The notes beneath the pieces were generated by a model. The model worked only from the letters and a program-made list of their open reading frames with translations. It was not told the DNA's origin and did not search any database. From Merismopedia glauca CCAP 1448/3 (GTDB taxonomy: Bacteria > Cyanobacteriota > Cyanobacteriia > Cyanobacteriales > CCAP-1448), in NCBI RefSeq assembly GCF_003003775.1, contig NZ_PVWJ01000055.1, forward strand, positions 1-32,999: a DNA stretch of 32,999 nt, given 5' to 3'. Shown here in pieces: positions 5,771-30,892 of this stretch. The stretch's first letter is position 1; every line of letters begins with the position of its first letter. The position numbers and the translations under genes were made by a program.

Positions 5771-5805
5771 ATGCAAAAAGCACTCAAAAAATGGTCGGTC
5801 AATCC

Positions 5806-21008: not shown

Positions 21009-22433
21009 TCAACTTAATTCATCAAGTATAGCGATCGCAGTCACCCCCCACCGATTTTTCTTTTTGTCTAATTTTCTCACAGCAACAAGATTAACTATTT
21101 GGTTATCCTTTAGTTGGCTAGCTAGTTCATGTGGAACATAAACATCATCTACGAAACCAAATCCCTTTTGGTTAAGCTGAAACTGACCAGATCTAGAAAG
21201 CATACTATCAAAAGGTTGACCTAATTCACGTTTTTTAACGGCAACAACTGTTGGGCGATCGCCACTTTCATCAATAGTCACTATCACAGGATCGCCAAAG
21301 GTAAGAGTTAAATTGTTCAGCATACCTCGTTCAGGACTGACAATCTCTTGAGCTTCTCCATTGGACTTTAGAGCAAATTTGACCATTCTTGTTCCTTTTT
21401 GGGTTGAGAAAGTACCGAGATAGTTAGCATTATATTTTGGACATTGTGACCAAATAATTGTTTCGGCATCAACGGCTAAATGAGATAATATCTCTTTTGC
21501 ATCAGGCATACTCTCATCATGAGAATGCCAATCACTATTTAGCAAATTACGAAGTGACTGAGGAATTTTCCATCCATTTCTATTACGAATATAGAAGGCT
21601 TGTCTAGTAGCCCATTTAGCAATTTGTATTTCGTTCTGTTGCGCTGCCAAACGGCTCAGATCCTCAAAAACATTAACCCCAAAGTTTTCATCCCTACAGG
21701 TCAAACAAGCCTTTGCACATAATGCTAGAGCAAGTTTAGCGTCAGAGGCTTCAACAACCTTAGCTAAAGCGTACCAAGTCCAGTAATCACTTCTTTTTTG
21801 TTGTACGAAAGAAGTCAAGAGTTTCCGAGAATTTTCTGACCTTCCTAATTGATGAAATAGTAGAGCTTTGTGATAATGAAGCCATTCTGGTTTTTGAACC
21901 TTAGCTTTTTCAAGAGCAAAATCTATCAGTGTAATAGCGAAATCTTGTACTTCTCTAAAATCAGAGTAATCTTGCAAAGTTAAATCACGAGAAATCTTAC
22001 CAGTAGTTCTAGCTACTTTTTCAACTAATGATTCAAATACTTTATCGTCATTACCAGTCTGCGTCTGAAAGTCCTCTGCTCTGAAGCTATTAACTCCAGC
22101 CCACATCATAAATTTAGGTAGAAACTTAAGCTCATTTGGAAATTGAAGAACTTGAGATAATAGAAGACTAAAAAGCAGATCTGGTCGAGTAACATCGAGT
22201 CTTGCATATTCTCTAAGTATTTCCCTGAGATTGTTTGACGATCCCTCATATGCTGACTGGGATTTTTTAACCTCAGAAACTAAGTTTTTAATTTTTTCAT
22301 AAAGTACCCATCCAATAGCACTTGCAAGATATTTATCTTCAGGGTTTGATTTGAGAAGTTCATATCCTCTGAGATAAGCCTCTTCTAATTGCCCATCTTT
22401 TCTTAAAGCTGTAATCTCCTTTGCTAGTGACAT
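21009..22433 (-). CDS. Helical-repeat protein with C-terminal OB/cold-shock-like domains
   Basis: A 474-aa protein. Residues ~1-300 are helical with TPR-like spacing (EEAYLRGYELLKSNPEDKYLA; LALALCAKACLTC). Residues ~345-400 form one beta-barrel-like segment. The last ~65 residues are a clear cold-shock/S1-type OB fold: GQFQLNQKGFGFVDDVYVPH, then LKDNQIVNLVAVRKLDKKKN, in which GFGF-VDD resembles an RNP1-type nucleic-acid contact. It resembles the S1/CSD-like plus DUF7017-type proteins that I associate with TOTE conflict systems; this is from memory. Its ATG is 2 nt after the stop of the helicase-like gene, so the two are surely co-expressed. HIP1 sites are nearly absent, suggesting transfer. 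Probably a nucleic-acid-binding partner; function unproven. Confidence 0.7.
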   Translation of the reverse strand: MSLAKEITALRKDGQLEEAYLRGYELLKSNPEDKYLASAIGWVLYEKIKNLVSEVKKSQSAYEGSSNNLREILREYARLDVTRPDLLFSLLLSQVLQFPNELKFLPKFMMWAGVNSFRAEDFQTQTGNDDKVFESLVEKVARTTGKISRDLTLQDYSDFREVQDFAITLIDFALEKAKVQKPEWLHYHKALLFHQLGRSENSRKLLTSFVQQKRSDYWTWYALAKVVEASDAKLALALCAKACLTCRDENFGVNVFEDLSRLAAQQNEIQIAKWATRQAFYIRNRNGWKIPQSLRNLLNSDWHSHDESMPDAKEILSHLAVDAETIIWSQCPKYNANYLGTFSTQKGTRMVKFALKSNGEAQEIVSPERGMLNNLTLTFGDPVIVTIDESGDRPTVVAVKKRELGQPFDSMLSRSGQFQLNQKGFGFVDDVYVPHELASQLKDNQIVNLVAVRKLDKKKNRWGVTAIAILDELS

Positions 22434-22435
22434 TT

Positions 22436-25114
22436 TTACAACTCCAATGCCAAATGAACTGCTTCAACAATTTTAATACTTGTGTATCCTAAAGGGGCGA
22501 CTTTGGTAATAAATCCATCACCATCATAATGGATTCGCAGCTTCAAGTTTTCATCTTCTAACTTAAGATAATAAATTTCCTGAAAGTTGTTATGCTCAAT
22601 ACTTTGAATCAGTATCTTGTTTGTAGCGAGCTTTTCTTTAAGAAAATTGTAAACTTGTTTCTGAAAATCTGTTTCTAAGCGAACGCTTGATGTAATTAGC
22701 TCCCGAACATTAGATGCAAATTCAACTGGCTCTGATCTAATTGATTCAATTCTTGTAATTTGATATTTACCATTGTAATGTAATCGAATAGAACAAGAAG
22801 CTTGATTCACTCTATCCTCAAAATCATAAACCTCTTGGTAATTATGATGCTTATTGGAACATACATTAATTCCTTCAGATTTGATACTATCTACAATGTA
22901 TAAATAAAGATTTTTTAGGGGCTTATCAGAGATAGAGAATTGTGAAATGCTTCCACTGTCTACTTCAATATTAGGATCAAAGGCTATCAAATTAATAGGG
23001 CGAACAGAGTCAAGTTTGCCTTGCGTACTGTCCCAAATGACCTTATAAAAAGGTGTAATTTTGGGAATGTTTGACAAGATGATTTGTTCTTGAGGTATTG
23101 AAAGTAAAGTGTAAACCCAACGAAAATAAGACTCACTTGTTTTACCTTGTTCAATATCCATATTTGCAAAGACAGTTTTGAATTGCTGTCCTTGAGCGCG
23201 ATGTAAAGTTAGTGCATATCCAAATTTTAATCGAGCAGCATTAAAATAGGGATCATTACGCAGAAAATTGGATAATTCAAAACTATAGTTGGATTCTTCT
23301 ACATTACCTAAATTACTATTCTTCCAATATCTATCAAACTTTGTTTTTGTAGAAACAAATAGTGCTATAAGAGTATCCTTGTCAAGTTCAGGCTTATCAG
23401 CATACAGATAGTTCTTGAGGCAGAAAAACTCAATTTCTTTTGGAGTTTGAAGCAATTTTACTTTAAGTCTCAAAAAAGGAACTGTAATAGGATTTTCGCG
23501 TCCTTTAAGACGTTGCACCAATGGCTCAACATTTTCATTAACTTCTATTACCTCAGCAAAAGAATCATTTGATATATAAATAGGACGCTCAAAATCATCT
23601 TTATTTTCTAAAGAAAAACTGTTGTGGATATGTACAATATCACCTGAACTGATACTATTGCCACGTTTAAAAACATTTTGTCTTAACCAATTATTGAACT
23701 GATTAACTTCTGAATTGGAAAAGGCAATAAACTTTGTAGATATTGAATCTTTTAAGAATAATTCTTGGATTAATTGATGCTTAGAGGTTTGTTCAGATGG
23801 AGATTCAATAAGTTTTATCCCATCAGTAGCAATATCCATTTGATTGAATATCTTTTCATTTATGCGCTCTGCTAACTTTAAACAGTTAAGAATAAACAAA
23901 TCATTTTCTTTCTCAGGGAAAATATACTCAAGCACAACCTCATTTACCTGAAAACCAGTAACAGAGTGTAAGCGTTCGTTACATAGTGCTAACTCATCTG
24001 CTTTACCTCTTGTTATTTGAAATGGATCTCCAAGAAAAATAATTTGTCGTTCTGACTCTTTGAGGTTAATGAAACTAAGAAGATCTGTCAGGATTTGCCC
24101 ACTGCCGTAGCGCGAATCATCTGTCTCAAACTTTGAATCTGAAATCAAGTGGGCATCACCAATAATGTAAAGCTGATTTCTAGTATCCTTGTTATCAGTT
24201 AGTGCATAGATAAATTTTTCGTTGTCAAGCTTTGGATTTCGCGAATAGATATGAGTATAAACACTGTCTGCTTCGACTAAATAATGTGAGGCTAGACGAC
24301 GATTAGGTGCAAGAACAGAATAGTATCGACTTTTTTCTAATGCTTTAGAAGCAATAACATCAATTAATTGCTCCAAACCAGTTCCAATCATTCCAGAAAT
24401 GATTAAAATTCGTTCTGATGATTCTAGAAAATTTTCAATCTGAGAAATTGCAAACTGAAAAGAGCTAGGTAATTCCCGTTCATCTGTATCAACTACTTTT
24501 GTCGAAAAACTAACTGCTTTAACATCTGTTCCTACTGGTTTGTACTCAGGAATAGATAATGTCTTTGTAATGTAATCTAAATCTTGATTGGATAGACTAA
24601 TCCCACGGCTAGTAATTTGTGATAACCGCTCTATTACATGGTCAAAGTCAACTATGTGAAACCACCTTTCAATGTTGGGTGGTAATTGGCTATCATCAAA
24701 CGTAATAGATTTGTGAAAAAGCACTAGCCCAGATATATGTCCTAGATTTGGTTGAGTACCCGAAAGGAAACTAATTCTCTTTAAGACTTCAAGTAGTGCA
24801 AACTTGTTATCTCTGATTTGAATATATGGATTTTGCTTGTTACCCCCTCTAATTTCAACTTTATCTGCAAACCATTTACCATTTTCGGAAAACTTAATAA
24901 TTCCCCCATAGTCTTTGAAGTCAATAACAGTAATGCTGTCTTTCTTCAAAATTGCTGCATCAATCTCAGAGCCTTGACAATGAAAATTGCCCAGGAGAAG
25001 AACAATATCTTCTGAGTTACCCCAAACTTCTTCTAGCCTGCCCAATAACGCATCGAATATGCGATTCTCATGCATTGTTGTGTAAGGTTGTGTTCGATAT
25101 GCTTGGATAGCCAT
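22436..25114 (-). CDS. NERD nuclease-like / SF1 helicase-like fusion protein
   Basis: An 892-aa protein. Residues ~10-115 form a NERD (nuclease-related) domain with Glu50/Asp52 (GSEIDAAI) and Asp65-x-Lys67 (VIDFKDYGG). Residues ~215-700 have an SF1 (UvrD/RecD-like) layout: a Walker A position SGMIGTGLEQL (240-250) in which the usual Lys-Thr is Leu247-Glu248, Walker B-like YIIGDAHLIS (316-325), motif III LGDPFQI (361-367) and the late motif YALTLHRAQGQQF (633-645). Two similar C-terminal beta domains follow (~731-808, ~812-892), each with a CSIRLHYNG/LKLRIHYDG core. The missing Walker lysine suggests weak or absent ATP hydrolysis. It is the first gene of a tight two-gene operon with the OB-fold protein. 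Likely role: DNA or RNA targeting in a defence or conflict system (inference). Confidence 0.75.
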   Translation of the reverse strand: MAIQAYRTQPYTTMHENRIFDALLGRLEEVWGNSEDIVLLLGNFHCQGSEIDAAILKKDSITVIDFKDYGGIIKFSENGKWFADKVEIRGGNKQNPYIQIRDNKFALLEVLKRISFLSGTQPNLGHISGLVLFHKSITFDDSQLPPNIERWFHIVDFDHVIERLSQITSRGISLSNQDLDYITKTLSIPEYKPVGTDVKAVSFSTKVVDTDERELPSSFQFAISQIENFLESSERILIISGMIGTGLEQLIDVIASKALEKSRYYSVLAPNRRLASHYLVEADSVYTHIYSRNPKLDNEKFIYALTDNKDTRNQLYIIGDAHLISDSKFETDDSRYGSGQILTDLLSFINLKESERQIIFLGDPFQITRGKADELALCNERLHSVTGFQVNEVVLEYIFPEKENDLFILNCLKLAERINEKIFNQMDIATDGIKLIESPSEQTSKHQLIQELFLKDSISTKFIAFSNSEVNQFNNWLRQNVFKRGNSISSGDIVHIHNSFSLENKDDFERPIYISNDSFAEVIEVNENVEPLVQRLKGRENPITVPFLRLKVKLLQTPKEIEFFCLKNYLYADKPELDKDTLIALFVSTKTKFDRYWKNSNLGNVEESNYSFELSNFLRNDPYFNAARLKFGYALTLHRAQGQQFKTVFANMDIEQGKTSESYFRWVYTLLSIPQEQIILSNIPKITPFYKVIWDSTQGKLDSVRPINLIAFDPNIEVDSGSISQFSISDKPLKNLYLYIVDSIKSEGINVCSNKHHNYQEVYDFEDRVNQASCSIRLHYNGKYQITRIESIRSEPVEFASNVRELITSSVRLETDFQKQVYNFLKEKLATNKILIQSIEHNNFQEIYYLKLEDENLKLRIHYDGDGFITKVAPLGYTSIKIVEAVHLALEL

Positions 25115-25261
25115 TGATTATAGTGGCGAGTTGTAATACCTCAGTATATACGTGCTGGGTCTAGCATCCTACCAATATAAGTAGAAATTGCCAAGAATCG
25201 ACAAGTAAAAGGAGAAGCAGGAGAGTATAACTGATCTGACTAAACGGGCAACAACTTAGTT

Positions 25262-26168: not shown

Positions 26169-28682
26169 TCAAATTTTGAATGTGGGATGCTCCCCGTCTT
26201 CATAAGGACCAAGGAACCTTTCCCCGTCAAAATGAATCATATGTTCGGGTTGATCTGCTACCCATACCTCTGTTTCCCAAGAAATTTCAGCAAGATAGCG
26301 AGTCATCTCTCTGCGACTCGTAAAAGCAGTAACAAAGACTAATCCTTTACTACTTGACTGAAATATTTGTCTTAGCTCATTACGACGTTTCAAGCTGATT
26401 GGCCCATGACTGGTTACCGCTTCCACCAAAACAAGCCAATCTTGCTGCTGGTAGTGAACTACAAGATCGGGCATTTTTCCATGAGGATCTAATTCGAGTC
26501 CCATCTCTTTCATCTTTTGAGCTTCATTGATGACAAATTTATCTCCAGCATCACCGATATACAGAACAATGCCTCCTGGCGTAAATCTTGGGCAAAAATT
26601 CTCGACAATACTTTTTATCAATTGGTTCTGACCCCCTGATGAAAGTTGAATTGATCGACCATCAGGTAAAGTTACAGGAATAAAAGGTAGGTTTCGATCT
26701 TTTTCGAGCAAAAAGTTTTCTACTGAAGCTCTGTATTCTTCTATTGAGTTTTCCCAACTACTAGCGCCATAATTTTTTAGAAGTCGCAATGCAGGGGCAG
26801 AAAGTTTGTAGCAGTAATCCTGGCTATTAACAGCCCTATCAGATTGGTCGGGATTTTCGATAACTAACCCCATCTGGACAAATGGCTGAATAGACTCTTT
26901 CCTAATAGATTCACGAGAATTGGGTTTATACTCAACACCATAAAACTGTTTGAACCACTGCATCATTTGAGTGATGCCAAGCTTGGGATCGGTTGATTGA
27001 TTCCAAAGTGTTTCAGTTTGAATATCTGCTAACGCCAGTAAACACAGTGCAGAACGAATATTTTGTTGTTTTCTTGGTGCAGTAATTGTCTTAAGAATAT
27101 CAAGTGCTTCATTAACACGTTTATTATTTTTGACTACTGCTGTAACTTTGCTCATAATAGGTAAGATTTGATGAACGAGTGCATCCACTTGGTCTTGGTC
27201 AAAAACAGCATCACCAATTTTTTCTCCTAATTGCATTAAATCTTCTTTGCATGGATATCTAATCCTGCGTAAGTCTGTGGCATTAACTTGTGTATGTCCA
27301 CTGAATTGGCGGAAATAGTTATCAAATAAAGTTGAATTTAGAAATGCTGTTAGACCCTGTGCCAGGTGTACATTCATCCCGATTCCGTTAGCATGGTAAT
27401 AGTTAAGGTGATTTTCAATACCAATAGCTGGTGCATTTATAGGAGGGCATACGGCAGCAATAATACGCCGTTTCTCCTCTTTAGCAGAAAAACGCTTTAC
27501 TAAAACATACCAACCTGGATGAACTAACCATTTTGAAGTTTCTTCGTTTTTCTCAATAGCTATTGGCTTGCGAGGTTTGGTTGGTGGAAAATAGACTTTG
27601 CCAGCTTTCACCGATTCTGGATAAAAAAGAGGAACATCACGATCGCCTAAGCAATTTCTCAAAGCAGATTTAAGACGAAAATCAACCACTGGCCCTGTTG
27701 ACACCTCTACACCAAGTTCTTCCAAGGTTGAGGGAAACTTTTCCATCTGTACTTTTAAAAAGTTTTCCAATGAATTGGTAACGATATGGATTATATTATC
27801 TGAATCCCTTTCCTCAACCACCTCACTGTAAGGAACAAATCTGATCTCTGAAAATTCTTTCATTTCATCTTTGATGTTATTTGTTACTTCTATAAATTCA
27901 GGTTTTTCTGCTGTTTTAATAGCATGAAATATAACATTTTCTTGTAATATACTGTCATCTGAAAAAGCTTCTAAACGACTCTCAAAAAGATGAATCTTAT
28001 TCAGTGACATTTCTTTGAGAAAAGCTTTACGGAAGGTGCGAAAATATGTGCCATTACAAAAGCTTCGAGGTGTAATGGCAGCCATTTCACCACCTTCAGC
28101 CAGATGTAACATAGCAAGCCAAACAAAAGCACTGTACAAATTGACTGTATCAATTCCTAGACTTAAGAGAATTTTTTTTTCTAACGATTTACTGTTTATC
28201 TTTCTATAAGGTGGGTTCAGAATTGTGTGAGTGAAATAACTGCGGGATGTAGCTAACAGTGGCAAAGCAATTTCCGCACTAGCCTCGATAAAACTTTGAT
28301 GATGTAAACAGTAATCTGCCTGAATTCCGTGCTTCTTTAAAGAAGAGCAGCACTCTAGAAGACACTGTTCTAAAGGTGCCAAAAAACTTGCTTCTACTTC
28401 ATAAACAGTCATAAAGCAACTTTCAACATTTTGAGATTTTGCCAATAACTGCTCGACAAAGGCAGCAGTAAGCATCCCTACTCCAGCACCAGGGTCCAGA
28501 AGACTAATATGACCTGAAAGATTGCTAAACTGATTCGCCAGAAAACGAGCAATCGGTGCTGGAGTTAAAAACTGTCCTAATTCACTACGCTGCTTCAGAT
28601 TCAGTCTTGAGGAGCAATGAATCTGGGTAATGTCAGTAGAGTCTGTGATGAACGTCGTCATACTGTCAATTAACTCTCTCAT
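26169..28682 (-). CDS. Fused adenine DNA methyltransferase / PstI-BsuBI-type restriction enzyme
   Basis: About 837 aa from ATG 28682 (MRELIDSMTTF); ATG 28661 is also possible, and a TTG at 28754 would extend into poorly conserved sequence. The N-terminal half is a DNA N6-adenine methyltransferase with a LKQRSELGQFLTPAPIA start, SAM motif LDPGAGVGML (~62-71) and catalytic NPPY (~156-159). The last ~300 residues match the BsuBI/PstI endonuclease family: a helical region, then VLYIGDAGDKFV, HGKMPDLVVHY and WLVLVEAVTSHGPISLKRR with the Asp...Glu active-site pattern, ending EHMIHFDGERFLGPY. BsuBI and PstI cut CTGCAG; no CTGCAG was found in this window. It is therefore a single-chain restriction-modification protein, divergent from thrB. 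HIP1 octamers are absent from the gene. Confidence 0.88.
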   Translation of the reverse strand: MRELIDSMTTFITDSTDITQIHCSSRLNLKQRSELGQFLTPAPIARFLANQFSNLSGHISLLDPGAGVGMLTAAFVEQLLAKSQNVESCFMTVYEVEASFLAPLEQCLLECCSSLKKHGIQADYCLHHQSFIEASAEIALPLLATSRSYFTHTILNPPYRKINSKSLEKKILLSLGIDTVNLYSAFVWLAMLHLAEGGEMAAITPRSFCNGTYFRTFRKAFLKEMSLNKIHLFESRLEAFSDDSILQENVIFHAIKTAEKPEFIEVTNNIKDEMKEFSEIRFVPYSEVVEERDSDNIIHIVTNSLENFLKVQMEKFPSTLEELGVEVSTGPVVDFRLKSALRNCLGDRDVPLFYPESVKAGKVYFPPTKPRKPIAIEKNEETSKWLVHPGWYVLVKRFSAKEEKRRIIAAVCPPINAPAIGIENHLNYYHANGIGMNVHLAQGLTAFLNSTLFDNYFRQFSGHTQVNATDLRRIRYPCKEDLMQLGEKIGDAVFDQDQVDALVHQILPIMSKVTAVVKNNKRVNEALDILKTITAPRKQQNIRSALCLLALADIQTETLWNQSTDPKLGITQMMQWFKQFYGVEYKPNSRESIRKESIQPFVQMGLVIENPDQSDRAVNSQDYCYKLSAPALRLLKNYGASSWENSIEEYRASVENFLLEKDRNLPFIPVTLPDGRSIQLSSGGQNQLIKSIVENFCPRFTPGGIVLYIGDAGDKFVINEAQKMKEMGLELDPHGKMPDLVVHYQQQDWLVLVEAVTSHGPISLKRRNELRQIFQSSSKGLVFVTAFTSRREMTRYLAEISWETEVWVADQPEHMIHFDGERFLGPYEDGEHPTFKI

Positions 28683-28778
28683 TTGGGATGTGATACCAAG
28701 TATCAGTAGTAGCTGCAATCTGGATGACTTCCATGAGATGCTAGGGGATGGCAAAACTCAGAATATTATCTAAGCTAC

Positions 28779-29998: not shown

Positions 29999-30892
29999 GT
30001 GGTTGTCAAACCAGAGTGGTTGCGGGTTAAAGCACCGCAGTGGGAACGGGTCGGCAGTGTTAAAGATATTTTGCGAGATTTGCAGCTAAATACAGTTTGC
30101 GAAGAAGCTTCTTGTCCGAATATTGGCGAATGTTTTCAGGCAGGTACAGCAACTTTTTTAATTATGGGACCTGCTTGCACCAGAGCTTGTCCTTACTGCG
30201 ACATAGATTTTGAGAAACAGCCGAAAGCTTTAGATCCGACGGAACCAGAACGCTTAGCCGAAGCGGTGCGTCGTTTGAAGCTGAATCACGTAGTTATCAC
30301 TTCTGTCAATCGCGATGACTTACCAGATGGGGGTGCGTCTCAATTCGATCGCTGCATCCAGCAAGTGAGATTGCTTTCTCCAGGGACGACGATTGAAGTT
30401 TTAATTCCCGATATGTGCGGCAATTGGCAAGCTCTAGAGGCGATATTAGCAGCCAATCCCGAAGTTTTGAATCATAATACCGAAACTATACCCCGCTTAT
30501 ATAAACGAGTTCGTCCTCAAGGTAAATACGATCGCTCCCTCGAATTGTTACAGAAAACCCGCCAATTGGCTCCTTGGGTTTACAGCAAATCTGGCATTAT
30601 GGTGGGATTGGGAGAAACTGACGCGGAAGTCAGAGCAGTGATGGAGGATTTACGACGGGTAGATTGCGATATTTTGACTATCGGACAGTATTTGCAGCCT
30701 TCAGCTAAACATTTAGGGGTAGTTGAATTTGTCACTCCAGAACAGTTTGATGCATGGCGAGAGTATGGCGCAAGTGTCGGCTTTTTACAGGTAGTATCTT
30801 CGCCTTTGACTCGCAGTTCCTATCATGCTGAAGAAGTGAGAGCTTTAATGGCAGCATATCCCCGTTTACCTGCGAAAACAGCACTTATATAG
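29999..30892 (+). CDS. lipA: Lipoyl synthase
   Basis: A 297-aa radical-SAM enzyme that inserts two sulfurs into octanoyl groups on the E2 and GcvH lipoyl domains. Both iron-sulfur sites are visible: auxiliary cluster Cys34, Cys39, Cys45 ([12 protein letters not shown]) and radical-SAM Cys60, Cys64, Cys67 (CTRACPYC). Conserved [10 protein letters not shown], a [10 protein letters not shown] segment and the C-terminal RSSYHAEE (the serine ligand of the auxiliary cluster) are present. The start is GTG 29999, with AGGGAG at 29984-29989 (9-nt spacing). It could be LipA1 or LipA2, because many cyanobacteria carry two. No lipB is adjacent. Confidence 0.95.

What the first reader, a model, noticed from the sequence alone, without database searches (positions are those of the whole stretch)
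21009..25114. Two-gene candidate conflict system: NERD/SF1-helicase-like protein plus helical-repeat/OB-fold protein
The genes are 2 nt apart on the same strand. The first fuses a NERD nuclease-like domain to an SF1 helicase-like core and two C-terminal beta domains. The second pairs a TPR-like array with cold-shock/S1-like OB folds. This is the architecture expected of a nucleic-acid-targeting defence module, and it sits near a restriction-modification gene in a HIP1-poor block. I associate such S1/CSD-like domains with TOTE conflict systems, but this arrangement without a primase is not one I know to be characterised.
Basis: partly seen in the sequence, partly recalled or inferred. Interest (0 to 1): 0.75.

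Follow-up and report, generated by a model that had tools for sequence, protein, structure and literature searches.

The report
TOTE-type defence candidate with dead helicase
Two neighbouring cyanobacterial genes, already listed in a defence database as an untested candidate anti-phage system, encode a predicted DNA-cutting domain fused to a helicase that appears to have lost its ability to use ATP, plus a partner protein of a type that binds RNA or single-stranded DNA.

Summary
Gene A (22436-25114, minus strand, 892 aa) is NERD + SF1 helicase fold + two TBP-TOTE repeats. Gene B (21009-22433, minus strand, 474 aa) is a TPR-like solenoid plus two OB-like modules. They lie 2 nt apart.

This matches the TOTE recipe (TPR, OB, TBP, Effector), and the pair is PADLOC candidate PDC-M16A/B. 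It is catalogued, but I found no published test. B follows A directly in every locus with a complete A gene and readable 3' flank. In 386 cyanobacterial genomes, strong hits to both partners fall in the same four. The pair moves horizontally: on plasmids, among E. coli insertion sequences, and inside a nifH interruption element.

The new point: in this cyanobacterial clade (11 sequences, one group) the helicase has lost four ATP-site residues invariant in 16 relatives (Q-motif Gln, Walker A Lys, Walker B Asp, motif VI Arg). Motif III and V residues and the NERD catalytic residues are kept. One sublineage lost NERD cleanly in frame; its A gene then shows weaker constraint than B. Likeliest reading: a nuclease effector on a static, ATP-independent nucleic-acid clamp. 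Defence function is inferred, not shown; neighbouring genes were not clearly defence-enriched.

The parts
22436..25114 (-). Gene A, 892 aa: NERD nuclease + degenerate SF1B helicase core + two TBP-TOTE repeats (PADLOC PDC-M16A)
21009..22433 (-). Gene B, 474 aa: TPR-like alpha-solenoid + two OB-like modules (PADLOC PDC-M16B)
24635..25114 (-). NERD (PD-(D/E)xK-type) region of A, residues 1-160; E16, E50, D52, K67, Q99 invariant in seven aligned NERD regions, position 65 Asp or Glu in all seven
   Evidence: Pfam PF08378; alignments
23054..24475 (-). SF1B (Dda/RecD2/Pif1-like) helicase core of A, residues 214-687
   Evidence: VIA-align Z 25.4 to Dda 3upu, 24.7 to RecD2 3gp8
24374..24394 (-). Degenerate Walker A GMIGTGL, residues 241-247; invariant Lys of live relatives replaced by Leu/Ile in the whole clade
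24146..24166 (-). Degenerate Walker B IIGDAHL, residues 317-323; invariant Asp replaced by Gly/Ser in the clade
24017..24031 (-). Motif III GDPFQ, residues 362-366; G, D and Q retained
23189..23209 (-). Motif V TLHRAQG, residues 636-642, retained (Thr invariant, His nearly so)
23096..23125 (-). Degenerate motif VI FRWVYTLLSI, residues 664-673; the Arg invariant in relatives at 673 is Ile/Val in the clade
22694..22924 (-). TBP-TOTE repeat 1 (PF22721)
   Evidence: E=2.5e-16
22478..22669 (-). TBP-TOTE repeat 2 (PF22721)
   Evidence: E=1.1e-17
21453..22433 (-). TPR-like solenoid of B (residues 1-327), includes DUF7017 at 21465-21887
21231..21437 (-). First OB-like beta module of B (residues 333-401)
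   Evidence: predicted strands only; no Pfam match
21024..21200 (-). Second OB-like module of B (residues 412-470), S1CSD-TOTE-2
   Evidence: Pfam PF22707
25115..25148 (-). 34 nt upstream of A's start codon, still homologous to the Pseudanabaena mucicola copy; homology ends here

Best explanation
A mobile two-gene conflict system of the TOTE type (PADLOC candidate PDC-M16). B is the sensor/adaptor: its OB modules bind RNA or ssDNA and its TPR solenoid docks A or a phage or host protein. A is the effector: the TBP repeats and the SF1B fold hold a nucleic-acid structure and the fused NERD PD-(D/E)xK domain cuts it. In this cyanobacterial clade the helicase core no longer hydrolyses ATP and serves as a static clamp or recognition scaffold, while the nuclease remains active. 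Shown by sequence: architecture, pair conservation, mobility, loss of ATP-site residues, retained nuclease residues, weaker constraint after NERD loss. Inferred: anti-phage role, A-B complex, nuclease activity and target, clamp function.
For: All four TOTE elements are present (acronym in PMC12458937). Both proteins match PDC-M16 models. B directly follows A in 28 loci; exceptions are truncated or broken copies and one distant helicase. Within 386 cyanobacterial genomes, TBP-TOTE above cut-off and strong DUF7017 hits fall in the same 4 genomes, about 1e-9 by chance. Patchy: 10 of 391 genomes of the order. Horizontal: AB is 84% identical DNA to the P. mucicola copy in a different context, while the other matches of that stretch are 64-80%, the longest 70%. 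Also on plasmids, in 53 of 5426 E. coli genomes, at differing IS-flanked sites in the four chromosomal copies read, and inside a nifH interruption element. ATPase loss: Q219, K247, D319, R673 lost in 11/11 but invariant in 16/16 relatives, one group at 100/100 support. NERD residues kept; NERD omega 0.07-0.19, lower than the whole helicase and the TBP part in every pair. After in-frame NERD loss, A omega about 0.6 against 0.15 for B (replacement:silent 18:7 vs 12:27, p=0.002).
Against: No experiment. No defence-neighbour enrichment in a small control test. NERD is absent from plasmid, Nostoc and Bacteroides-like members, so the nuclease is not universal in the family. No solved structure matches the NERD or TBP part by sequence. 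Loss of catalytic motifs is strong but indirect evidence for loss of ATPase activity.
Confidence: 0.58

Rival explanations
1. Active helicase-nuclease: the divergent core still binds and hydrolyses ATP by non-canonical residues and unwinds DNA for the NERD nuclease, as a RecBCD- or Dna2-like machine.
For: Fold is clearly SF1B; motif III and V residues are retained; the helicase region is under purifying selection, omega 0.15-0.27.
Against: Lys of Walker A, Asp of Walker B, Gln of the Q motif and Arg of motif VI are all replaced in all 11 clade members, and kept in 16 of 16 relatives.
Confidence: 0.12
2. Not defence but a mobile-element maintenance or competition module (plasmid or element stability, exclusion of rival elements).
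For: Carried by plasmids beside stbA, in a nifH interruption element, and between insertion sequences; weak defence neighbourhood.
Against: Also chromosomal in many cyanobacteria; PADLOC lists it as a defence candidate; TOTE domains are otherwise described in conflict systems.
Confidence: 0.2
3. RNA-directed system: NERD or the whole complex acts on RNA or R-loops, with OB modules and the SF1 fold recognising RNA, giving growth arrest instead of direct DNA cleavage.
For: S1/cold-shock type OB module in B; Foldseek also lists Schlafen and Upf1, but far below Dda.
Against: NERD belongs to a nuclease superfamily mostly acting on DNA (general knowledge); the helicase fold is nearest to DNA helicases Dda and RecD2; TBP-like domains suggest DNA.
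Confidence: 0.15
4. A decaying remnant with no present function in this genome.
For: Degenerate ATP site; NERD-less A in Microcoleaceae with raised omega; broken A in a Leptolyngbya plasmid.
Against: Window copy is open and full length, omega 0.13-0.27 against P. mucicola, and the replacements are conserved across genera.
Confidence: 0.05

Closest known systems
TOTE conflict systems (TPR, OB, TBP, Effector; Aravind, Iyer and Burroughs 2022, as cited in PMC12458937)
   Same: All four element types, found with the TOTE-specific Pfam models TBP-TOTE and S1CSD-TOTE-2
   Different: Effector and TBP are fused in one protein, the effector is NERD with a degenerate SF1B helicase, no primase domain found; I could not read the 2022 review itself
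PADLOC PDC-M16 (PDC-M16A + PDC-M16B)
   Same: A matches model PDLC04469 end to end (892 of 892, 1783 bits); B matches PDLC04483 (871 bits)
   Different: The family mixes live and dead helicases, and NERD, DUF4145 or no N-terminal domain; I found no description of the ATP-dead subclade in what I could search
[quoted passage not shown] PMC12458937)
   Same: NERD nuclease, TPR-CSD fusion and TBP together
   Different: TALON has a YprA-family helicase with these as further genes, largely in Chloroflexota; here the helicase is SF1B and fused to NERD and TBP
SF1B helicases Dda / RecD2 / Pif1
   Same: Fold of residues 207-687, Z 25.4 (Dda) and 24.7 (RecD2)
   Different: ATP-site residues lost in this clade

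Membership tests
TOTE conflict systems | TPR component | tested here: met
   DUF7017 E=1.8e-40; model matches TPR proteins, best Z 15.8 at 7.7 A rmsd over 273 residues. Single TPR Pfam models stay below cut-off in the window protein.
TOTE conflict systems | OB (S1/CSD-like) component | tested here: met
   S1CSD-TOTE-2 E=3.8e-15; two beta modules in the model
TOTE conflict systems | TBP component | tested here: met
   TBP-TOTE, two stretches, E=2.6e-33
TOTE conflict systems | Effector component | tested here: met
   NERD 35.4 bits, cut-off 22.1, catalytic residues present
TOTE conflict systems | Role in biological conflict | not testable with these tools
   needs phage or plasmid challenge
TOTE with primase effector | AEP primase domain | tested here: not met
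   no such domain in A or B by Pfam at E up to 10
PADLOC PDC-M16 | A and B models both matched by adjacent genes | tested here: met
   adjacency
PADLOC PDC-M16 | Demonstrated anti-phage activity | not testable with these tools
   PDCs described as mostly unvalidated (PMC12988326)
TALON | YprA-family helicase in the locus | tested here: inconclusive
   A's helicase is SF1B by Pfam and fold; neighbours were scanned with PADLOC only
Active SF1B helicase | Walker A Lys, Walker B Asp, motif VI Arg, Q-motif Gln | tested here: not met
   all four replaced in 11 of 11 clade members
NERD (PD-(D/E)xK) nuclease | Conserved catalytic E, D, (D/E)xK, Q | tested here: met
   E16, E50, D52, K67, Q99 invariant, position 65 D/E, in seven aligned NERD regions

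The most novel reading that the evidence does not exclude
A lineage of helicase-nuclease defence proteins that abandoned ATP-driven unwinding and turned its SF1B helicase into a passive, nucleic-acid-structure-recognising clamp that positions an active NERD nuclease, with a TPR-OB partner as trigger.
Probability: 0.45. Interest if true: 0.66.

Novelty: new variant of a known kind. Interest (0 to 1): 0.52.

Why it matters
TOTE-type systems have been proposed from sequence, and I found no experimental test of this pair. This family offers a natural experiment: live helicase without NERD (plasmids, Nostoc), live helicase with NERD (Bacteroidota and others), dead helicase with NERD (this clade), and dead helicase without NERD (Microcoleaceae). 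Comparing them would show which activity does the work. A relative of the pair sits on E. coli plasmids and chromosomes, so the core family can be tested in a standard laboratory host.

Tried and rejected
Search of viral contigs with the A alignment found no relative; four 'phage' records match, and the one opened (L071) looks like a bacterial chromosome by its ORFs. DUF7017 hits across cyanobacteria at weak E-values are general TPR proteins and were not counted. Synteny with the same-family genome G001 gave no shared neighbourhood and no clean empty site. Defence-neighbour enrichment was tested with PADLOC on 67 neighbours against 67 control proteins: both sets returned mostly generic hits (a NifS-like protein as DndA, an FtsH-like one as IetA, a TnpB-like one as Cas12f, by my reading), so no enrichment is claimed. 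PDB sequence searches with the TBP and NERD regions gave nothing credible. The structural list for A is filled by the helicase, so the TBP and NERD folds were not independently tested by structure. Literature searches for PDC-M16, DUF7017 and 'TOTE conflict systems' returned no paper on this system.
Full report
WHAT IS THERE. Two minus-strand ORFs, A (22436-25114, 892 aa) and B (21009-22433, 474 aa), are separated by 2 nt. A carries Pfam NERD (38-133), UvrD_C_2 (632-672) and two TBP-TOTE repeats. B carries DUF7017 (183-323) and S1CSD-TOTE-2 (415-469). The predicted model of B (mean pLDDT 82.7) is an all-helical solenoid to residue 327 followed by two beta modules; the solenoid matches TPR proteins, best Z 15.8. 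The model of A (mean pLDDT 75.1; the linker and parts of NERD are poor) contains a helicase core that matches T4 Dda (Z 25.4, 412 residues, 6.0 A) and RecD2 (Z 24.7, 334 residues, 3.9 A), and two helix/4-strand/helix repeats at the C-terminus. The sequence profile also points to Dda and RecD2. TBP and NERD assignments rest on Pfam, not on structure comparison.

IS IT A PAIR. Iterated profile searches over fetched loci found a B homologue next to A in 28 loci, some of them duplicates of one another. The four exceptions are two copies cut short near contig ends (L050, L054), one broken copy (L070) and one distant helicase fragment match (L065). Gaps are mostly between -40 and +3 nt; one is 245 nt. 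In the same 386 cyanobacterial genomes, TBP-TOTE above cut-off and strong DUF7017 hits fall in the same four genomes; the chance of such coincidence is about 1e-9. These four share the same gene family, so the figure measures linkage, not independent events.

MOBILITY. A-family genes occur in 10 of 391 genomes of the order. The P. mucicola copy is 84% identical in DNA over window 21024-25148, the two genes plus 34 nt, in a different context; other matches of the same stretch between these two genomes are 64-80%, the longest (window 30005-30861) 70%. Plasmids: 108 records with A-like and 67 with B-like hits; some Acinetobacter hits among the 108 are stand-alone NERD proteins. E. coli: 53 of 5426 genomes, 42 with at least 80% coverage, 29 places on chromosomes and 24 on plasmids; the four chromosomal contexts read have insertion sequences nearby and differ from each other. 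In locus L043 the pair lies between the two halves of a nifH gene, with 15-bp direct repeats CCGTGAAGGTAAAGC at 5784 and 14225 and a protein with a weak phage-integrase match inside. nifH interruption elements with xisA-like recombinases are known (PMC4874684).

THE DEAD HELICASE. Aligning 27 A proteins, Gln 219, Lys 247, Asp 319 and Arg 673 (window numbering) are invariant in 16 relatives and replaced in all 11 members of the window clade (Walker A GMIGTGL, Walker B IIGDAHL, motif VI YTLLSI), whereas Gly 362, Asp 363, Gln 366 and Thr 636 are invariant in both groups. Some other residues invariant in relatives also changed (for example Asn 499 and Trp 645), so loss is concentrated in, not confined to, the ATP site. 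The clade is one group with support 100/100 on a tree of residues 214 onward; two rows (L071, L101) have long branches. Omega across the whole helicase region is 0.15-0.27, so it is maintained. Synonymous sites are near saturation in the more distant pairs; the window/P. mucicola pair is the most reliable.

THE NUCLEASE. E16, E50, D52, K67 and Q99 are invariant in seven aligned NERD regions, including Bacteroidota and an Acinetobacter plasmid protein. NERD omega is 0.07-0.19, below the whole helicase and the TBP part in every pair. In three Microcoleaceae the start codon and the DNA just upstream match those of a full-length sister (L041), but the reading frame joins directly to about residue 212, an in-frame loss of NERD. 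Within that lineage A shows omega about 0.6 against 0.15 for B; single-change codons are 18 replacement to 7 silent in A and 12 to 27 in B, Fisher p = 0.002, while the two comparisons with full-length A show no such difference. Counts are small. The simplest reading is that in this clade A without its nuclease is under weaker selection.

HOW IT MAY WORK. By domain logic: B senses RNA or ssDNA through OB modules and contacts partners through TPRs; TBP repeats and the SF1 groove of A hold DNA; NERD cuts. In live relatives ATP-driven translocation could help; in this clade recognition would have to be ATP-independent. Motifs III and V of SF1 enzymes contribute to strand contact and coupling (general knowledge of SF1 helicases), hence the clamp idea. 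None of this is shown experimentally.

KNOWN OR NEW. PADLOC lists the pair as PDC-M16; PDCs are described as candidates mostly awaiting validation (PMC12988326). TOTE is expanded as TPR, OB, TBP, Effector, and TALON is a TOTE-like system with a NERD nuclease and a YprA helicase (PMC12458937). I therefore file the find as a variant of a known kind. The ATP-dead NERD subclade, its NERD-less offshoot and its presence in a nifH element are points I did not find described in the library searched.

LIMITS. The neighbour test was small and used generic models. Rooting is by midpoint, so which N-terminal state or ATPase state is ancestral is not settled. Some MAG sequences assigned to different phyla are nearly identical (L061, L062), which may be transfer or mis-binning.

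Noticed in passing
window 26169-28754 (-): Single 861-aa protein fusing an adenine methylase to a BsuBI/PstI-type restriction endonuclease.
   Followed up: partly
L043:5359-14687: nifH interruption element carrying the A-B pair and an integrase-like protein, with 15-bp direct repeats.
   Followed up: partly
L042/L052/L053 upstream of A: Clean in-frame loss of NERD with start codon and upstream region preserved.
   Followed up: yes
L099:8001-8837: Stand-alone NERD protein on large Acinetobacter plasmids, 35% identical to A residues 1-217, without an adjacent annotated helicase.
   Followed up: no
L070:8118-9128: Leptolyngbya plasmid copy of A broken after about residue 360.
   Followed up: no
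L040:2790-4445 and L043:8759-10372: B homologues with an extra segment of about 70 aa between the two OB-like modules, possibly a third OB module.
   Followed up: no
L061 and L062: Nearly identical A-B loci in MAGs labelled Bacteroidales and Ignavibacteria: recent transfer or mis-binning.
   Followed up: no
L071:5221-11418: Record labelled phage but with bacterial-looking ORFs; its A-B pair lacks NERD and is followed by two further same-strand genes.
   Followed up: no
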